Below, piece by piece: positions 1-7,418 of a DNA stretch of 7,418 nt; the first letter of the stretch is position 1, and each line of letters starts with the position of its first letter. The notes beneath the pieces were generated by a model. That model was not told the DNA's origin and did not search any database. It saw only the letters and a list, made by a program, of their open reading frames with translations. The DNA is from Flavobacteriaceae bacterium. GTDB taxonomy: Bacteria; Bacteroidota; Bacteroidia; Flavobacteriales; Flavobacteriaceae. The stretch is from NCBI GenBank assembly GCA_016763715.1, contig JAESTG010000354.1, forward strand, positions 1-7,418. Reading direction: 5' to 3'. The position numbers were made by a program, and so were the translations under genes.

Positions 1-675
1 GAACTTAGCATACAAATTTATGGTATTATATTCTTTTGTGAACGCTATAAATTCATTTTTATATCTTTCTTCGAACGAACTTAAAAGATAGCTTTTCTCT
101 CCTGTCTTAAAGTTTTTACCCGCTGCCTGCCAGTATAAATGTTCTAAGGCATGTTCATATGAAGTGTTTCTGTCAATACTGTCTCGGAATCTTGCATCAA
201 TTAAGTTGATTAAATCTGTTGATGCAAACTCAATTTTTCGGTATTGGGCGCTTTGAAACCCACTAGCTGGTGTTAGGGTATTTCTAAATTTTAAATACTG
301 TTCAACTTCCATTCCTTCAGACATAATATTGAAAGACGAAGTTAGCATGTCAAAATAACGACTAATTCGCATCAAACGTTCTGAGAAAAACTGAGCTTCC
401 AAATTTTCATGATGTGAAACTTGCTCAATTTCCCATAGAATCATCTTAAATAGCAATTCATTAATTTGATGGTACATGATAAAGACCATCTCATCAGGTA
501 GAGTGGTTCGCTGCGTTTGCAGTCCTAATAAAGCGTCCGTTTGAATATAATCCCAATAGGTAATTGGTTCGCCATAAAGCAATCCTTCCAAATGGGTATC
601 CACATCCTGACCTATTGCATCGTATTTATGCTTTAATTGCTCGAGTAGTTGTTCGGTTTTTGGTTGTTTCTTCAT
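1..675 (-). CDS. kynA: Tryptophan 2,3-dioxygenase, C-terminus cut off by window edge
   Basis: Heme enzyme that opens the indole ring of L-tryptophan with O2 to give N-formylkynurenine, the first step of the kynurenine pathway; cytoplasmic. The frame is open from ATG at 673-675 to the window edge, giving 225 residues; family members of this kind run to roughly 300, so the C-terminal part, including the proximal heme histidine, lies outside. Visible hallmarks are the YGEPITYWDYIQ segment (about 34-45), DEMVFIMYHQINELLFKMIL (about 61-80) with the distal-pocket histidine H69, and FRNTLTPASGFQS (130-142), whose Arg131 matches the substrate-carboxylate arginine of the family. ATG was chosen because the encoded protein starts where the family does and the codon lies 3 nt after the stop of the upstream DUF3108 gene, suggesting co-transcription and translational coupling. 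No frameshift or odd residue is visible. Identification is confident. Confidence 0.95.
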   Translation of the reverse strand, partial: MKKQPKTEQLLEQLKHKYDAIGQDVDTHLEGLLYGEPITYWDYIQTDALLGLQTQRTTLPDEMVFIMYHQINELLFKMILWEIEQVSHHENLEAQFFSERLMRISRYFDMLTSSFNIMSEGMEVEQYLKFRNTLTPASGFQSAQYRKIEFASTDLINLIDARFRDSIDRNTSYEHALEHLYWQAAGKNFKTGEKSYLLSSFEERYKNEFIAFTKEYNTINLYAKF

Positions 676-678
676 GTG

Positions 679-1449
679 TTAATCTACTTGTATTCTGAAT
701 GAATTTTTTAATCCTCTAAATTCACTAAGAGATGCTTTTAGTGATCCTATGGCCAAATCGGCCTTTATTAAAACTGGCATTCTATTACTATCATCGGTAA
801 CCCAAACAGTTAAACTTTCTTTTTCCTTGAAGACACGCCCCGATTGTACATAGGGCCTAAATTTCAAAGTGGGTACTTTTCCAAATTTAGTTCGAATGAC
901 TTCTCTTCCTAAAAATTTAAGTCTGAATTTATAACTTTCCTTATCGAAAAACATATTCATATCTATCGTCTCTCCTACTTCAATATTAGAAACATCCAGA
1001 CGACTGCGAAGATAATAAAATGCAGAGACCATATCCTGTGCATCCTTAGGAAAATCGACCCATTCTTTGGTTTTATGCTTTTTGTTATTTACAAGTGCTT
1101 TCCCTCTTTCGTGATCAAAGTCTATTTGAATATCCTTGGTATGTCCTCCTTCGTCTATTTTCCGAATAAAACGATATGGCATATCCGTTTCCTTATCTAC
1201 ATAGGACTGGTAATCATCATCTACCTTGAAAAAAGCACGAGAAAACCCAGTAGTTTTTCCATATCCCTTTATATGATATACTTCTTTACCATTCAAAATT
1301 TCATTACCAACTTCTAAGGTCGCATAGCCCGCAGTAACAAAGCCATAATGCACTCGAAATTTAAACCATTCGCCATCACCATAGGCTCGCTCTTGTGCAG
1401 TTGAAAGCAACGTTATACCGCAAAGAAATAAAAATATAAATTGTTTCAT
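679..1449 (-). CDS. Exported DUF3108-family protein
   Basis: A 256-residue protein of unknown function. Residues 1-18 look like a Sec signal peptide: one Lys, a hydrophobic core FIFLFLCGITLL, then STA before QE, a plausible signal peptidase I site. C10 sits within the hydrophobic core and is not in a convincing lipobox, so a soluble periplasmic or loosely attached protein is more likely than a lipoprotein. The mature part begins GEWFKFRVHYGFVTAGYATLEV and continues as alternating hydrophobic beta-rich segments, the pattern of the DUF3108 family. No catalytic motif is evident. The gene starts 111 bp after hppD stops, and its own stop is 3 nt before the kynA ATG, so it is probably translated together with tryptophan dioxygenase. 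An envelope protein inside a cytoplasmic catabolic cluster is unexpected; whether it takes part in the pathway cannot be told from sequence. Family assignment is from recognition of the N-terminal motif. Confidence 0.8.
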   Translation of the reverse strand: MKQFIFLFLCGITLLSTAQERAYGDGEWFKFRVHYGFVTAGYATLEVGNEILNGKEVYHIKGYGKTTGFSRAFFKVDDDYQSYVDKETDMPYRFIRKIDEGGHTKDIQIDFDHERGKALVNNKKHKTKEWVDFPKDAQDMVSAFYYLRSRLDVSNIEVGETIDMNMFFDKESYKFRLKFLGREVIRTKFGKVPTLKFRPYVQSGRVFKEKESLTVWVTDDSNRMPVLIKADLAIGSLKASLSEFRGLKNSFRIQVD

Positions 1450-1512
1450 TGTAATCTAGTTTGAGGTGTATAGTAAGCAACTTGCAAGGACTGTTCCAAA
1501 AACAAAACCCCA

Positions 1513-1529
1513 CCATCTTTAGACGATGG
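1513..1529 (-). terminator. Possible weak terminator after hppD
   Basis: About 30 bp past the hppD stop, the minus strand reads CCATC, a 7-nt loop GTCTAAA, then GATGG, followed by TGGGG and the T-rich stretch TTTTGTTTTTGG (down to 1496). The stem has only 5 pairs and the T-run does not directly abut it, so at best this is a leaky terminator or a processing hairpin between hppD and the DUF3108 gene. Confidence 0.25.
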
Positions 1530-1560
1530 AATTTTCAATCTGTTACATACTACCACCATA

Positions 1561-2724
1561 CTACAACGTTCCTCTTCGTGCTTGTTGTCTTTCAATAGCC
1601 TCAAAAAGTGCTTTAAAGTTTCCAACCCCAAAAGATTGTGCTCCTTTTCGTTGTATAATCTCAATGAACATGGTAGGTCTGTCAAGTACATTGTTCGTAA
1701 ACAATTGTAATAAATAACCTTCCTCATCTCTGTCTATTAAAACTCCATGTTTTTTTAATACTTCAATATCTTCATCTATCTCTCCAACTCGTTCTAAAAT
1801 ATCATCATAATAGGTTTCTGGCACATATAAAAACTCTACCCCTCGATCTCGCATTGCCGAAACAGTGGCAACAATATCATCAGTTGCTAAGGCAAGGTGT
1901 TGCACTCCCGCTCCATTATAAAAATCTAGATATTCTTCAATCTGTGATTTCTTTTCAGCTTTTGCTGGTTCGTTGATTGGGAACTTAATACGTCCGTTTC
2001 CATTACTCATCACCTTACTCATCAATGCAGTATATTCGGTAGCGATGTCGTCATCCGCGAACGAGATAATTTGAGCAAACCCCATTACTTCAGCATAAAA
2101 CTTACACCAAATATTCATTTCATTCCAACCCACATTTCCAACGATATGATCTATAAATTTTAATCCTAATGGTTCAGGGTTATAATGAGATTCCCATTTT
2201 TCGAATCCGGGTAAAAAGATTCCATTGTAATTCTTTCGCTCAATAAACAAGTGCACCGTTTCTCCATAAGTATAGATTCCCGATTTGATTACATATCCAT
2301 CCTCATCCTCCTCTCGTGTAGGTTCCAAATAAGGTTTGGCTCCTCTGCTTGTGGTTTCTTCAAACGCTTTCGTAGCATCATCTACCCAAAGGGCAATCAC
2401 CTTTGCTCCATCGCCATGCTCGTCAATATGACGATTCAAATCTCCTCCTTTATTTAAAGGGGTCGTCAAGACTAATCTAATTTTATCTTGCCTAATTACA
2501 TAAGACACCCGGTCTTTCAAACCTGTTTCCAAGCCTGCATAGGCTTCAGATTGAAACCCGAAGGCACTTTTGTAATAATAAGCCGCTTGCTTGGCGTTTC
2601 CAACATATAGTTCAACATAATCTGTGCCTAATAGGGGAAGGAAATCCTCTGCATCGCTAAATAGCTTTTTCAAGCTATACTCTGTATTCTGTAAATCTTT
2701 TAAATTTTTTATTTCTTTTGCCAT
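1561..2724 (-). CDS. hppD: 4-Hydroxyphenylpyruvate dioxygenase
   Basis: Non-heme Fe(II) enzyme that turns 4-hydroxyphenylpyruvate plus O2 into homogentisate and CO2, the second step of tyrosine degradation; cytoplasmic. The 387 residues match the usual length. Two vicinal-oxygen-chelate domains are visible: an N-terminal one (about 31-165, beginning LLGTDYVELYVGNAKQAAYY) and a catalytic C-terminal one (about 188-360). The iron-binding triad is present: H193 in IDHIVGNV, H276 in GVQHLALAT and E355 in FIEIIQR. The segment GYLLQLFTN (336-344) and the C-terminal gate helix GVGNFKALFEAIE (365-377) are also typical. The ATG at 2722-2724 gives a normal N-terminus; there is no Shine-Dalgarno site, as usual in Bacteroidota. 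hmgA ends 123 bp upstream, so the two consecutive pathway enzymes are adjacent and probably co-transcribed. No key residue is missing. Confidence 0.97.
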   Translation of the reverse strand: MAKEIKNLKDLQNTEYSLKKLFSDAEDFLPLLGTDYVELYVGNAKQAAYYYKSAFGFQSEAYAGLETGLKDRVSYVIRQDKIRLVLTTPLNKGGDLNRHIDEHGDGAKVIALWVDDATKAFEETTSRGAKPYLEPTREEDEDGYVIKSGIYTYGETVHLFIERKNYNGIFLPGFEKWESHYNPEPLGLKFIDHIVGNVGWNEMNIWCKFYAEVMGFAQIISFADDDIATEYTALMSKVMSNGNGRIKFPINEPAKAEKKSQIEEYLDFYNGAGVQHLALATDDIVATVSAMRDRGVEFLYVPETYYDDILERVGEIDEDIEVLKKHGVLIDRDEEGYLLQLFTNNVLDRPTMFIEIIQRKGAQSFGVGNFKALFEAIERQQARRGTL

Positions 2725-2752
2725 TGTAATTGTCTTTTAAAGGTGATTCGTA

Positions 2753-2771
2753 TTTCTTTATTCTGAAGAAA
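2753..2771. promoter_or_regulatory. Inverted repeat upstream of hppD, possible operator
   Basis: TTTCTT (2753-2758), a 7-nt spacer and AAGAAA (2766-2771) form a perfect 6-bp inverted repeat 29 bp before the hppD start, in the 123-bp hmgA-hppD gap. The half-site resembles the TTTCTC/GAGAAA palindrome before hmgA, but the spacer lengths differ (7 against 5). In DNA this AT-rich, such repeats arise easily by chance. I found no convincing Bacteroidota promoter (TTTG then TAnnTTTG) in the gap. Confidence 0.15.
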
Positions 2772-2847
2772 ACGTCGCCTATGACCACATGGCCCTTGAA
2801 TGAGGGGTAAGGTCTATTCGTTTTTGTGCTTTACTTTCCATAATATC

Positions 2848-4011
2848 CTATTGGTTTTCTAACCAAGATTGAAAATAAGTATCATCAGCAATCTTCATTG
2901 CTTCTTCGGTCACCATGAGTGGTTTAAAAGTATCCACCATTACGGCCAATTCACTAGTCTCAGTTTTACCAATACTTCGCTCTGTCGCTCCAGGGTGTGG
3001 ACCATGTGGAATCCCAGCAGGATGCAGAGAGATATGGCCTGCATCTATGTCGTTTCTGCTCATAAAATCACCATCTACATAATACAATACCTCATCACTA
3101 TCAATATTGCTGTGATTGTAAGGGGCTGGAATACTGTCTGGATGATAATCGTACAATCGAGGCACAAAACTACAAATCACGAACGTATCGGTCTCAAAAG
3201 TTTGGTGTACAGTTGGCGGCTGATGAATGCGTCCAGTAATAGGTTCAAGATCGTGAATGGAAAAAGCATATGGAAAATTATATCCATCATAACCCACTAC
3301 ATCAAAAGGATGCGTAGCATATATCATATCGAAGATATCGTCATTCTTTTTAACCTTTACTAAAAATTCTCCTGTTTCATCATAAGTTTCCAGTTCCTGT
3401 GGCTTGCGAATATCACGCTCACAAAAGGGGGAATGTTCCAGTAGCTGTCCAAACCAGTTGCGATATCGTTTTGGAGTATAAATAGGGCTTCGTGATTCTA
3501 CAATAAACAATCGATTATTTTCATCATCAAATTGCAATTTATAAATCATCCCTCTTGGAATTAAAAGGTAATCTCCATATTTGAAATTCAAATTTCCCAT
3601 GTGGGTTCGTAGCTTTCCACTTCCTTTATGGATAAAAATAAGTTCGTCCGCATCGGCATTTTTATAAAAATAGTCTTCTTGTGAATGTTTGGGTGCTGCC
3701 AAAATAATATGGCAATCGCTATTGGTTAACACCACCTTTCGGCTTTCTAAATAATCATTCTCTGGTGGCACTTGAAAACCGCGAAAACGGTAGGAGTGCA
3801 TATTATTTGACTTCGCAATTTTAGGTGCTACACCATATTGGCGTTTTATTTCTTTTACCTGTGTAGGGCGATGTTCATGATAGAGGTTACTGTACATCCC
3901 GTCAAAACCGACGGTTCCAAAGAGTTGTTCCGAATAGAGTGTTCCGTCTGGTTTGCGGAACTGAGTGTGTCTTTTAGGGGGTATTTTTCCTAGTTTGTGA
4001 TAAAATGGCAT
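2848..4011 (-). CDS. hmgA: Homogentisate 1,2-dioxygenase
   Basis: Non-heme Fe(II) enzyme that cleaves the ring of homogentisate with O2 to give 4-maleylacetoacetate, the step after HppD; cytoplasmic. The 387-residue protein has the cupin-type fold pattern of the shorter bacterial branch, against about 430-445 in the human/Pseudomonas branch. The N-terminal motif GFDGMYSNLYHEHRPTQV (35-52) and the cupin strand KYGDYLLIPRGMIYKL (144-159) are typical. The metal site lies in PYNHSNIDSDEVLYY (297-311) and LHPAGIPHGPHPG (329-341). H300 and H336 are 36 residues apart, as are the human ligands H335 and H371. The acidic ligand is E307 or D306 (see findings). The ATG at 4009-4011 gives a full N-terminus. 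A 225-bp gap separates it from the patatin gene upstream, the largest in the window and the likely promoter region for the catabolic genes. Confidence 0.96.
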   Translation of the reverse strand: MPFYHKLGKIPPKRHTQFRKPDGTLYSEQLFGTVGFDGMYSNLYHEHRPTQVKEIKRQYGVAPKIAKSNNMHSYRFRGFQVPPENDYLESRKVVLTNSDCHIILAAPKHSQEDYFYKNADADELIFIHKGSGKLRTHMGNLNFKYGDYLLIPRGMIYKLQFDDENNRLFIVESRSPIYTPKRYRNWFGQLLEHSPFCERDIRKPQELETYDETGEFLVKVKKNDDIFDMIYATHPFDVVGYDGYNFPYAFSIHDLEPITGRIHQPPTVHQTFETDTFVICSFVPRLYDYHPDSIPAPYNHSNIDSDEVLYYVDGDFMSRNDIDAGHISLHPAGIPHGPHPGATERSIGKTETSELAVMVDTFKPLMVTEEAMKIADDTYFQSWLENQ

Positions 4012-4236: not shown

Positions 4237-6483
4237 TTAAAACCTAAAACCAACATTCACATACCACTCATCGGTCCTGCGTTCAGGCGAATAGGAATAC
4301 TTTAATTCAATAGGACCAAAGAAAGTCTCCAAACCATAGCCTAAAGCAAAACCACTATAGTCAATCCTCTCAAGCCATTCAACTCGCTCAAACAACTTAT
4401 CCCCAACATTGGCAATATTTCCTGAAATATTAATGTGGTTATTCTTGAAAATTTCACAATCCAAAGTTATTTGTGAACTTAAATAAGTGTCTCCACGTAG
4501 GCTTAACGCTTCATAACCATAAAAAGGGATAATATTATTAAGGGGTTTGTAACCGTAACCGCCAACAAAGAAGTCCAATGAATTAGTTCCTCGGTCTCCC
4601 AATCGAAAACCACCGGATGCTGAAACCAGCATAGAAAAACTAGGTGAGAGTGACAATGCGTATGCTATTTTCGTTTTCGCAATTGAGAAAGGATCGAAGG
4701 TGTCGCTTCTACCTTTAGCAAATAAATACCAATGAAAGTCTCCTTCAAAATAGAGTCCTTCAGTGGGGAAATATTTATTATTAAAAGTATCATACTTCAA
4801 AACACCATAACTACTGAAGTAACTGGTGTTTTCAAAAACAGTTTGAGGGAGGTTGTTTTCATCTACACCTATGGTTTTTGACAACAACCGAAGCCATTTA
4901 TGCTCTGCACCCAAACGCAACAAAAAACTTCTACGAAAAACGGTCTGTGCAAAAATTTGATTGGTAAAATCAGAGTATTCCAAATCCAACTGATTCACCT
5001 GCTGTTGTTGAATAACCGCCTCCTCTTCCCCTAAAATAAAATTGGTAGCTACATCCTGATTAAAAGTATTATAGGCAGAGCTTAGCCCTACACTCCAATA
5101 AAACCCTTTGTCCACATAATAATCTAAATTGCAGCGTAAATTATCCCCTACAACCAAATCCAAAGAAGCCACATCATTATTAGTAAATAACCGTTTTCTG
5201 GTAATATTAATCAAGGCAGCGGTGCGATATAAATCGTCATAATGTACCGCCAATCGAAGTAGCGTTTTCGAACTGCTTTCTTGTAATTGAAACTGAACCG
5301 AATATTCTTCAGCGTTATCTGGGTCTTCAATAAATTTATAATCAATACCATCATAATTGCCTGTAGCAGAAAGGTTATTCACCCCTTCATTGAATTTTTT
5401 ATAGCTCACTTCGGAAGGAATTTTCAATCTCAATTTACCTAAAACATAAGAACGGGTGTAATTCTCATTCCCATGAATTCCAACATCATAAATATAAATG
5501 GATTCTCTGGTATTAAGGATAACGGCACGCTTTGACATTTGAATTTGTTGCGCAGCCGCTTTTTTCAAATTGGGAAGTAATTTGGCTGCAGCTTCTTCTC
5601 CGGCATTTACAAGCTTCGATTCTTCTGCAAAAGAAACCATAGAGAAATCTTTAATTTCTGGATGAATATAGATGTCCGTTTTCTTTCGCTTCTCCACCAT
5701 ATCGTTGATGGTTCGATAATTACTAATTTGTACCATAACATCTACCGCAGACTTCAAATCCTCTCTACCTCTCAATTCATCCTGAACATCCACCCCTATC
5801 ACAATATCTGCACCCATGGCACGTACCTCATCTACTGGGTAATTATTCACTACACCTCCGTCTACATAAATGGTGTCATTAATAATTACGGGGCTAAAAA
5901 GCGACGGCAAAGCTCCGCTTGCAGCCAGCGCTTTGGGCAAATACCCTTTGTTAAGTATGACTTCTTTTCCAGTTTCAATATTGGTAGCCACACACAAAAA
6001 TGGAATTGTCAACTTGCTAAAATCATCCACATCTTTCACATGAATCAACAAACGGGAAAGTAAATTATATATGTTCTGTCCTTTCGAAATTCCCGATGGA
6101 AGCGATAATTTAAAATCATCAAACGGTAAAGTGATTGCATATTTTTCAGAATCTGCCTTTTCATAAAAAGTCTTAGCTCCTCTTGGCACCTCATCCTGAA
6201 TTAAGGTCTGGAAGTCTACTCTCTTAAAAATAGAGTCTAACTGTCTGGCGTTATAACCTGAAGCATACAAGGCGCCTATAATAGCTCCCATACTTGTTCC
6301 ACCAATATAGTCAACCCGAATTCCTGCTTCTTCTATCACTTTTAGCACACCAATATGGGCTAGTCCTTTAGCTCCACCTCCACTCAACACCACGCCAATT
6401 TTAAGATCCTTCTGTTGTGTTTCTTGTGCAAAAGAAAAAGCACCTATTAATAAGGCAATGATGATGATGATGATATGTTTCAA
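4237..6483 (-). CDS. Patatin-like phospholipase with POTRA-like and outer-membrane beta-barrel domains
   Basis: Predicted serine lipase/phospholipase anchored in the outer membrane, 748 residues. Residues 1-19 are a signal peptide (six consecutive Ile, then AFSFA before QE). The patatin domain spans about 27-310: oxyanion loop GGGAKG (35-40), nucleophile S64 in GTSMG (62-66) and the partner D208 in DGG (208-210), so the Ser-Asp dyad is intact. Residues about 328-405 resemble a single POTRA domain, and about 405-748 are alternating strands of a BamA/TpsB-like barrel. Barrel signatures are YFPTEG (571-576), FGPIELKYSYS (722-732) and a terminal aromatic, GFRF. The layout matches PlpD-type proteins (type Vd secretion), although many Bacteroidota members probably remain attached. 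The start is TTG at 6481-6483: no in-frame ATG lies between it and the upstream stop at 6520-6522, and the next in-frame Met is M65, past the catalytic serine. It follows uvrC closely. Natural substrate unknown. Confidence 0.93.
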   Translation of the reverse strand: MKHIIIIIIALLIGAFSFAQETQQKDLKIGVVLSGGGAKGLAHIGVLKVIEEAGIRVDYIGGTSMGAIIGALYASGYNARQLDSIFKRVDFQTLIQDEVPRGAKTFYEKADSEKYAITLPFDDFKLSLPSGISKGQNIYNLLSRLLIHVKDVDDFSKLTIPFLCVATNIETGKEVILNKGYLPKALAASGALPSLFSPVIINDTIYVDGGVVNNYPVDEVRAMGADIVIGVDVQDELRGREDLKSAVDVMVQISNYRTINDMVEKRKKTDIYIHPEIKDFSMVSFAEESKLVNAGEEAAAKLLPNLKKAAAQQIQMSKRAVILNTRESIYIYDVGIHGNENYTRSYVLGKLRLKIPSEVSYKKFNEGVNNLSATGNYDGIDYKFIEDPDNAEEYSVQFQLQESSSKTLLRLAVHYDDLYRTAALINITRKRLFTNNDVASLDLVVGDNLRCNLDYYVDKGFYWSVGLSSAYNTFNQDVATNFILGEEEAVIQQQQVNQLDLEYSDFTNQIFAQTVFRRSFLLRLGAEHKWLRLLSKTIGVDENNLPQTVFENTSYFSSYGVLKYDTFNNKYFPTEGLYFEGDFHWYLFAKGRSDTFDPFSIAKTKIAYALSLSPSFSMLVSASGGFRLGDRGTNSLDFFVGGYGYKPLNNIIPFYGYEALSLRGDTYLSSQITLDCEIFKNNHINISGNIANVGDKLFERVEWLERIDYSGFALGYGLETFFGPIELKYSYSPERRTDEWYVNVGFRF
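6458..6474. repeat. Trinucleotide microsatellite in the patatin signal peptide
   Basis: The plus strand reads ATG five times plus AT, which in the coding frame is five successive ATC codons (Ile4-Ile8), followed by ATT for Ile9. The repeat makes up most of the hydrophobic core of the signal peptide. Slippage by whole units would lengthen or shorten the core by one Ile without breaking the frame. Confidence 0.85.
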
Positions 6484-6519: not shown

Positions 6520-6590
6520 TTATTTATTCGTTTCAGAATTTTTAAATTGAAAATGTGCTATTATTTTCTTGGATCTACTTGCTCCTACTA
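6520..6590 (-). other. uvrC: Out-of-frame continuation of uvrC (missing second helix-hairpin-helix)
   Basis: If the A7 run at 6591-6597 (coding strand) is read as A6, the uvrC frame continues after ...DALEK with IVGASRSKKIIAHFQ and eight more residues to TAA at 6520-6522, 23 residues in all, replacing the 5-residue tail NSRSK. The segment VGASRSKKIIAHF has the form expected for the second, C-terminal helix-hairpin-helix of UvrC (G, then a basic stretch, then a helix ending in HF). The corrected stop lies 36 bp before the patatin TTG. This supports a one-base frameshift, whether a sequencing error, a real mutation or recoding. Confidence 0.85.
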
Positions 6591-7418
6591 TTTTTTTCGA
6601 GAGCGTCAAAGCCAGCCTCACTGATACGTTTGGTGCTCTTAAAGTGCTTTAGCAACTCCACCACTGTCTTTTCTCCAATCCCCGAAATAGTTTCCAAGGT
6701 CGAATCTAGTGCTTCTTTACTACGTTTGTCGCGATGAAAAGTAATTCCAAACCGATGTGCCTCATTTCTTAGTTGCTGAATGATTTTTAATGTTTCAGAT
6801 TTTTTGTCCAAATACAACGGAATGGGATCCTCTGGATAAAATAGCTCTTCCAAACGCTTGGCAATACCCACAATAGCTATTTTACCTCGCAATTCCAATT
6901 TATCTAAACTTTTTAAAGCCGAAGACAACTGTCCCTTTCCTCCATCTACGATGATTAATTGTGGTAATGGTTGCCCCTCTTCCTTCAATCTTTTATAACG
7001 ACGATACACAACCTCTTCCATTGAAGCAAAATCATCTGGCCCTACTACCGTTTTTATATTGAATTTACGATAATCTTTCTTACTCGGTTTTCCATTCTTA
7101 AACACCACACAGGCAGCCACTGCATTTGTGCCTTGAATATTACTATTATCAAAACACTCGATATGACGAGGCTCTTCCGAAAGTCTCAAATCTTTTTTCA
7201 TTTGTGCCATAATACGATTGGCATGACGTTCTGGGTCTACAATTTTAGCTTGCTTAAATCGCTCCATTCGGTAATACTTAGCATTCCTAGTAGAGAGTTC
7301 CAATATTTTCTTTTTATCACCTGCTTTTGGAATGTGAATCTTAACATCAACTTCCGTTTTAATAGAAAAAGGAACATAGATTTCTTTACAAATGGAGCTG
7401 AAACGTTGTCTCAATTCA
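6575..7418 (-). CDS. uvrC: Excinuclease ABC subunit C, N-terminus outside the window, frameshifted at the C-terminus
   Basis: UvrC makes the incisions on both sides of a DNA lesion in the UvrABC nucleotide excision repair complex. The window holds 280 codons of a protein of about 600 residues; the GIY-YIG nuclease and UVR domains are outside. The first in-frame codon that could pass as a start, TTG at 7412-7414, is internal: the frame is open to the window edge and the text ELRQRF is mid-protein. The RNase H-like 5' nuclease domain is visible. Counting that TTG as residue 1, its catalytic residues are D89 in CFDNSNIQG, D157 in IIVDGGKGQL and H220 in RNEAHRFG. The first helix-hairpin-helix, ETISGIGEKTVVELLKHF (241-258), follows. 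The protein then ends abruptly at NSRSK, whereas the family carries a second helix-hairpin-helix; that sequence is present in another frame immediately downstream. The patatin gene follows and may be co-transcribed. Confidence 0.95.
   Translation of the reverse strand, partial: ELRQRFSSICKEIYVPFSIKTEVDVKIHIPKAGDKKKILELSTRNAKYYRMERFKQAKIVDPERHANRIMAQMKKDLRLSEEPRHIECFDNSNIQGTNAVAACVVFKNGKPSKKDYRKFNIKTVVGPDDFASMEEVVYRRYKRLKEEGQPLPQLIIVDGGKGQLSSALKSLDKLELRGKIAIVGIAKRLEELFYPEDPIPLYLDKKSETLKIIQQLRNEAHRFGITFHRDKRSKEALDSTLETISGIGEKTVVELLKHFKSTKRISEAGFDALEKNSRSK

What the first reader, a model, noticed from the sequence alone, without database searches (positions are those of the whole stretch)
6520..6600. 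uvrC is broken by one extra A in an A7 run; the lost C-terminus is intact in the next frame
Seen directly: the coding strand has CTCG, seven A, then TAGTAGG. As written the protein ends DALEKNSRSK. With six A it ends DALEK-IVGASRSKKIIAHFQ plus eight residues, stopping at 6520. The family has two consecutive helix-hairpin-helix motifs at the C-terminus, and the second is exactly what the alternative frame supplies. Explanations: a homopolymer sequencing or assembly error (most likely), a true recent mutation removing the DNA-binding second motif, or slippage at the A7 run producing a mixture of long and short UvrC. A7 is short for efficient transcriptional slippage, so programmed recoding is the least likely but the most interesting.
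Basis: partly seen in the sequence, partly recalled or inferred. Interest (0 to 1): 0.7.

Follow-up and report, generated by a model that had tools for sequence, protein, structure and literature searches.

The report
Repair gene with one extra A
A DNA-repair gene (uvrC) in this flavobacterium is cut short by one extra A in a run of A's, while the closest relatives examined have the full-length gene; this is most likely a sequencing error or a very recent mutation, not a new mechanism.

Summary
Confirmed: the coding strand reads CTCG-A7-TAGTAGG (T7 at 6591-6597 on +), so uvrC ends ...DALEKNSRSK at 6575. The next frame carries IVGASRSKKIIAHFQFKNSETNK and stops at 6520-6522. This is the real UvrC C-terminus: all 80 genome loci fetched carry its counterpart in frame, and the four closest listed proteins (94-95% identical) share its end, FKN..NK (P0160: 20 of 23 residues). 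None of the 80 loci has seven A's at this place; the closest has six, in frame. The lost piece is the hairpin and last helix of the second helix-hairpin-helix. Programmed recoding is unlikely: the run is not conserved; A8 or a -1 ribosomal shift hits TAG at once; and in a reporter test E. coli RNA polymerase showed no detectable slippage below eight A's and no deletion on the poly(A) runs examined (PMC6260861, passages). Runs of seven or eight A's are read in frame elsewhere in uvrC of 45 of 80 loci, so A runs here are ordinary. I favour a run-length error in reads or assembly (0.6) over a true recent mutation (0.35); recoding is about 0.04. Only reads can separate the first two.

The parts
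6575..7417 (-). uvrC 3' part as written (280 aa, 5' end runs off the window), ending DALEKNSRSK
   Evidence: ORF; Pfam UvrC_RNaseH_dom 194 bits; TIGR00194 uvrC 235 bits, below its 285 cut-off because the gene is partial
6591..6597 (-). A7 run on the coding strand (T7 on +), the site of the frame break
   Evidence: closest genome relative L001 has A6 in frame
6575..6577 (-). premature stop TAG of the frame as written
6520..6591 (-). ancestral UvrC tail in the next frame: IVGASRSKKIIAHFQFKNSETNK and stop (6520-6522)
   Evidence: counterpart in 80 of 80 loci
6523..6700 (-). C-terminal double helix-hairpin-helix region; the first motif is whole, the second is cut after its first helix
   Evidence: (profile of intact relatives matches the E. 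coli UvrC C-terminal domain 1kft and UvrC 2nrt); Pfam HHH_5 matches residues 240-274 only below its cut-off (20 against 27 bits)
4237..6483 (-). next gene downstream, patatin-Omp85 protein with TTG start, open to full length; not part of the lesion
   Evidence: TTG as first in-frame start also in relatives L002, L003, L004

Best explanation
The uvrC gene of this organism is an ordinary full-length uvrC, and the sequence in hand carries one extra A in a run whose ancestral length is most likely six. The extra base most likely came from a run-length error in reads or assembly. It shifts the frame at codon 276 of the window's part, replaces the last 23 residues with NSRSK, and so removes the hairpin and last helix of the second helix-hairpin-helix. 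Shown: the A7, the frame break, the tail's homology, and the absence of A7 at this place in the 80 loci. Inferred: that the extra A is technical rather than biological.
For: 80 of 80 genome loci are intact at the C-terminus and none has A7 at this place. L001 reads GAAAAAATAGTGGGC, six A's, in frame. All 39 listed proteins at 90% identity or more have tails of 15-23 residues after the cut point. P0160 ends VVGASRGKKIIEHFQFKNSETNK, 20 of 23 identical to the window's other-frame tail, so there is no sign of decay. The break sits in one of the only two 7-base runs of the window. Long-read-only assemblies in one benchmark kept about one error per 5 kb, over 80% of them in homopolymers (PMC8442456, passages). 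The window ends inside genes on both sides.
Against: The sequencing technology and depth are unknown. The other T7 (1750-1756, in the 4-hydroxyphenylpyruvate dioxygenase gene) and the other coding runs of six lie in frames that stay open, so the contig is not visibly error-rich. A real mutation of the same form would look identical.
Confidence: 0.6

Rival explanations
1. The extra A is a true, very recent replication-slippage mutation (A6 to A7), fixed or polymorphic in this strain. It makes a UvrC without a working second helix-hairpin-helix, so the 5' incision of nucleotide excision repair is expected to be weakened.
For: The site is A6 in the closest genome relative, L001, and homopolymers are hot spots for such mutations (PMC3812077, passages). 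The rest of the contig looks clean. The double helix-hairpin-helix is needed for single-strand DNA binding and the 5' cut (review PMC7835731, passages). uvrC degradation is known in some symbionts (PMC5310779, passages).
Against: No decay in the lost tail. No listed relative with the same end. The C-terminus of uvrC is intact in all 80 loci fetched.
Confidence: 0.35
2. The A7 run is a recoding site: RNA polymerase or ribosome slippage lets a share of products regain the tail, so the cell makes long and short UvrC.
For: Frame bypass at runs of 3-8 bases gave some functional protein in a laboratory gene (PMC3812077, passages). A precedent for two protein lengths from a poly-A run exists: tssM, A11, about 20% (PMC4256274, section 7 read). 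PMC6260861 also cites lacZ mutants with 7-11 A's in which deletion slippage occurred, at no more than half the rate of insertion, and an A11 tract at which E. coli RNA polymerase favoured deletions in vitro (passages). In Buchnera 21% of transcription deletions began in homopolymers (PMC5574713, passages).
Against: The run is not conserved: at this place the longest A run is 6 in 1 of 80 loci and 5 or less in 79. One added A gives EKK-stop, and a -1 ribosomal shift lands on TAG; only loss of one A, gain of two, or a +1 ribosomal shift reads the tail (and the sequence). In a reporter test E. coli RNA polymerase showed no detectable slippage below eight A's and no deletion on the poly(A) runs examined (PMC6260861, passages). 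A7 or A8 runs are read in frame elsewhere in uvrC of 45 of 80 loci.
Confidence: 0.04
3. This lineage naturally has a short UvrC tail and NSRSK is its normal end.
For: None found beyond the sequence itself.
Against: The next frame still holds the whole tail, including the FKN..NK end shared by the four closest listed proteins. None of the 80 loci ends short and none of 261 listed proteins ends in SRSK.
Confidence: 0.01

Closest known systems
UvrC, excinuclease ABC subunit C (TIGR00194; PDB 2nrt, 3c65, 1kft)
   Same: RNase H-type 5' endonuclease domain and first helix-hairpin-helix present; out-of-frame tail matches the family's end
   Different: Frame as written lacks the hairpin and last helix of the second helix-hairpin-helix
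Homopolymer-length errors in assemblies (as discussed for long-read assemblies, PMC8442456, passages)
   Same: One base too many in a homopolymer, frame break in an otherwise conserved gene
   Different: Technology of this record is unknown, so the source of the error cannot be checked
Poly-A transcriptional slippage genes such as Citrobacter tssM (A11; PMC4256274, abstract and section 7)
   Same: An A run shortly before a premature stop, intact tail in another frame
   Different: A7 not A11, not conserved in the relatives examined, and one added A ends the protein at once instead of restoring the frame

Membership tests
UvrC | C-terminal RNase H-type endonuclease domain | tested here: met
   Pfam PF08459, 194 bits, profile 2-159 of 159
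UvrC | Two consecutive helix-hairpin-helix motifs at the C-terminus, in the frame as written | tested here: not met
   The truncated end lacks the last helix (model: helices end at 53 of 56, against a fifth helix 55-68 in an intact relative; the short model has only 69 mean pLDDT). The missing part lies in the next frame
UvrC | N-terminal GIY-YIG domain | not testable with these tools
   The gene runs off the window at its 5' end and no own genome is held
Poly-A slippage (programmed recoding) gene | Run length conserved among relatives | tested here: not met
   At this place, longest A run 1-6 in 80 of 80 loci, six in one only
Poly-A slippage (programmed recoding) gene | The favoured slip (one added A) opens the tail frame | tested here: not met
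   A8 gives LEKK-stop; of runs 6 to 9, only A6 and A9 open the tail
Poly-A slippage (programmed recoding) gene | Two products seen in RNA or protein | not testable with these tools
   No transcript or protein data available here
Sequencing or assembly artefact | Reads disagree with the consensus at the run | not testable with these tools
   No reads available; no near-identical copy among those listed (best protein 94.9%; best DNA 80%)

The most novel reading that the evidence does not exclude
A real A7 acts as a leaky frame switch: most UvrC is made without the last helix of the DNA-binding domain, and a small share made by slippage keeps full 5' incision, so run length tunes repair and mutation rate in this lineage.
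Probability: 0.03. Interest if true: 0.6.

Novelty: not a real feature. Interest (0 to 1): 0.1.

Why it matters
Mainly a caution for annotation: without comparison, this uvrC would be catalogued as a truncated repair enzyme, although the full tail is there one base out of frame. If the A7 proved real, it would be a natural test of what the second helix-hairpin-helix of UvrC does in a living cell.

Tried and rejected
A natural short tail was rejected: 80 of 80 genome loci have the full tail in frame. Programmed recoding was judged unlikely from non-conservation, the wrong slip direction and the published limits of E. coli RNA polymerase.

A second frame problem at the start of the downstream patatin gene (no in-frame ATG at the start) was considered and rejected: in relatives such as L002, L003 and L004 the first in-frame start is also TTG.

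P0021 (289 aa, ends LDELEVGLSIGKNI) was considered as a second case of the same lesion. Its end does not match the window's short frame, and whether it is a frame shift or a deletion cannot be told without its DNA. P0102 stops inside the tail, which may be a contig end (inference). These are the 2 of 261 listed proteins with a tail under 15 residues.

A same-species copy was sought and not found: proteins (261 distinct listed, each search listing only its best 120 of about 8000 scored), genomes (capped at 80 loci, 131 of 149 genomes matched, best 80% DNA identity), viral contigs (8 pattern matches, no relative). No metagenome scan was allowed. No RNA family reached its threshold and no tRNA was found in the window. 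The codon-position count (382, 138, 589 differences at positions 1, 2, 3 over 14 codons against 80 loci) shows coding constraint in the tail frame, but mostly reflects the relatives' selection, not the window's own branch. Searches for a printed uvrC frame shift, slippage or truncation case (2, 3 and 7 papers) were seen as listings only; no title or abstract start describes such a case.

Full report
Observation. The coding strand at the end of uvrC reads CTC GAA AAA AAT AGT AGG AGC AAG TAG, with seven A's at 6597 down to 6591. The ORF as written (6575-7417, 280 residues, open at the window edge) ends DALEKNSRSK. The next frame carries IVGASRSKKIIAHFQFKNSETNK, with its stop at 6520-6522.

What the lost piece is. 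In all 80 the frame runs on through a counterpart of IVGxSRAKKIxxHF. Three protein searches gave 261 distinct listed proteins (counted). 259 have a tail of at least 15 residues beyond the cut point. The two exceptions, P0021 (8 residues, 83% identical) and P0102 (12 residues, 77%), end differently from the window. All 39 proteins at 90% identity or more have tails of 15-23 residues. The four closest (P0160, P0162, P0164, P0167; 94-95%) share the C-terminal extension FKN..NK with the window's other frame, with 20, 17, 19 and 19 of 23 tail residues identical. So the tail is the true end of this UvrC and shows no decay.

Domain. A profile of 41 of these C-termini (chosen by me from the 78 distinct ones listed) matches solved UvrC C-terminal structures 2nrt, 3c65, 8b0q and the E. 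coli domain 1kft, and other double helix-hairpin-helix proteins. Pfam's HHH_5 matches the window's first motif only below its cut-off (20 against 27 bits). Models of an intact relative (L003, mean pLDDT 78) and of the window's short form (mean pLDDT 69, so weak) share four helices with slightly different limits. The fifth, residues 55-68, is missing in the short form. Foldseek places the intact model with XPF, FAAP24 and UvrC C-terminal domains, at E-values near 0.004 and above and none at 0.001 or below, so as support only. A review says that this domain is required for single-strand DNA binding and the 5' incision, and may help the 3' incision in some contexts (PMC7835731, passages). A true truncation would therefore be expected to weaken repair; this is inference, since the first motif remains.

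The run. At the aligned place, the longest A run in the 18 bases up to and including the first codon of the motif is 1, 2, 3, 4, 5 or 6 in 6, 35, 16, 15, 7 and 1 of 80 loci. The one with six is L001, the closest of the 80 (91%), and there it is in frame. A6 is therefore the likely ancestral length, and A7 was seen in no other sequence here. DNA of the four closest proteins was not available. Elsewhere in the matched part of uvrC, runs of seven or eight A's occur in 45 of 80 loci, read in frame, so A runs in this gene look like an ordinary result of lysine codons in AT-rich DNA (window G+C 37%).

Why not recoding. With A8 the product is LEKK-stop; of runs 6 to 9 only A6 and A9 open the tail. 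A -1 ribosomal shift also lands on TAG, by the sequence. In a reporter test E. coli RNA polymerase showed no detectable slippage below seven T's or eight A's and no deletion on the poly(A) runs examined; sequencing of mRNA found 0.39% insertions at one A7 (PMC6260861, passages). Genome-wide, fewer than 1% of E. coli transcription deletions began in homopolymers, and no case of a restored frame was seen (PMC5574713, passages). Against this: in Buchnera 21% of transcription deletions began in homopolymers (same paper). PMC6260861 cites lacZ mutants with 7-11 A's where deletion slippage did occur, at no more than half the rate of insertion, and an A11 tract where E. coli polymerase favoured deletions in vitro. 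A laboratory study found bypass of indels at runs of 3-8 bases giving some functional protein (PMC3812077, passages). So faint leakage cannot be excluded, and the polymerase of this organism has not been tested.

Error or mutation. No whole genome of this organism is held, no same-species copy was found among the listed hits (best protein 94.9%; best DNA 80%), and no reads are available. The break sits in one of the two 7-base runs of the window. The other, in the 4-hydroxyphenylpyruvate dioxygenase gene, lies in a frame that matches its family profile to the end (2-353 of 353). I favour an artefact at 0.6 and a true recent mutation at 0.35; the figures are judgement, since technology and depth are unknown.

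Verdict. The finding is an ordinary one-base run-length change, most likely technical.

Noticed in passing
1-4011: Aromatic amino-acid breakdown cluster on the minus strand: tryptophan 2,3-dioxygenase (partial), a DUF3108 protein, 4-hydroxyphenylpyruvate dioxygenase and a homogentisate dioxygenase. The last scores far below the NCBIfam cut-off (69.5 against 510.75 bits), so it is a divergent form.
   Followed up: partly
6483: The patatin-Omp85 gene downstream of uvrC starts with TTG, and TTG is also the first in-frame start of its counterpart near uvrC in several relatives (for example L002, L003, L004).
   Followed up: yes
   Followed up: partly
L002, L004, L007, L009, L013 and others, end of uvrC: Several relatives carry an in-frame A8 run in the AKKI codons of the tail, which the window lacks.
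   Followed up: partly
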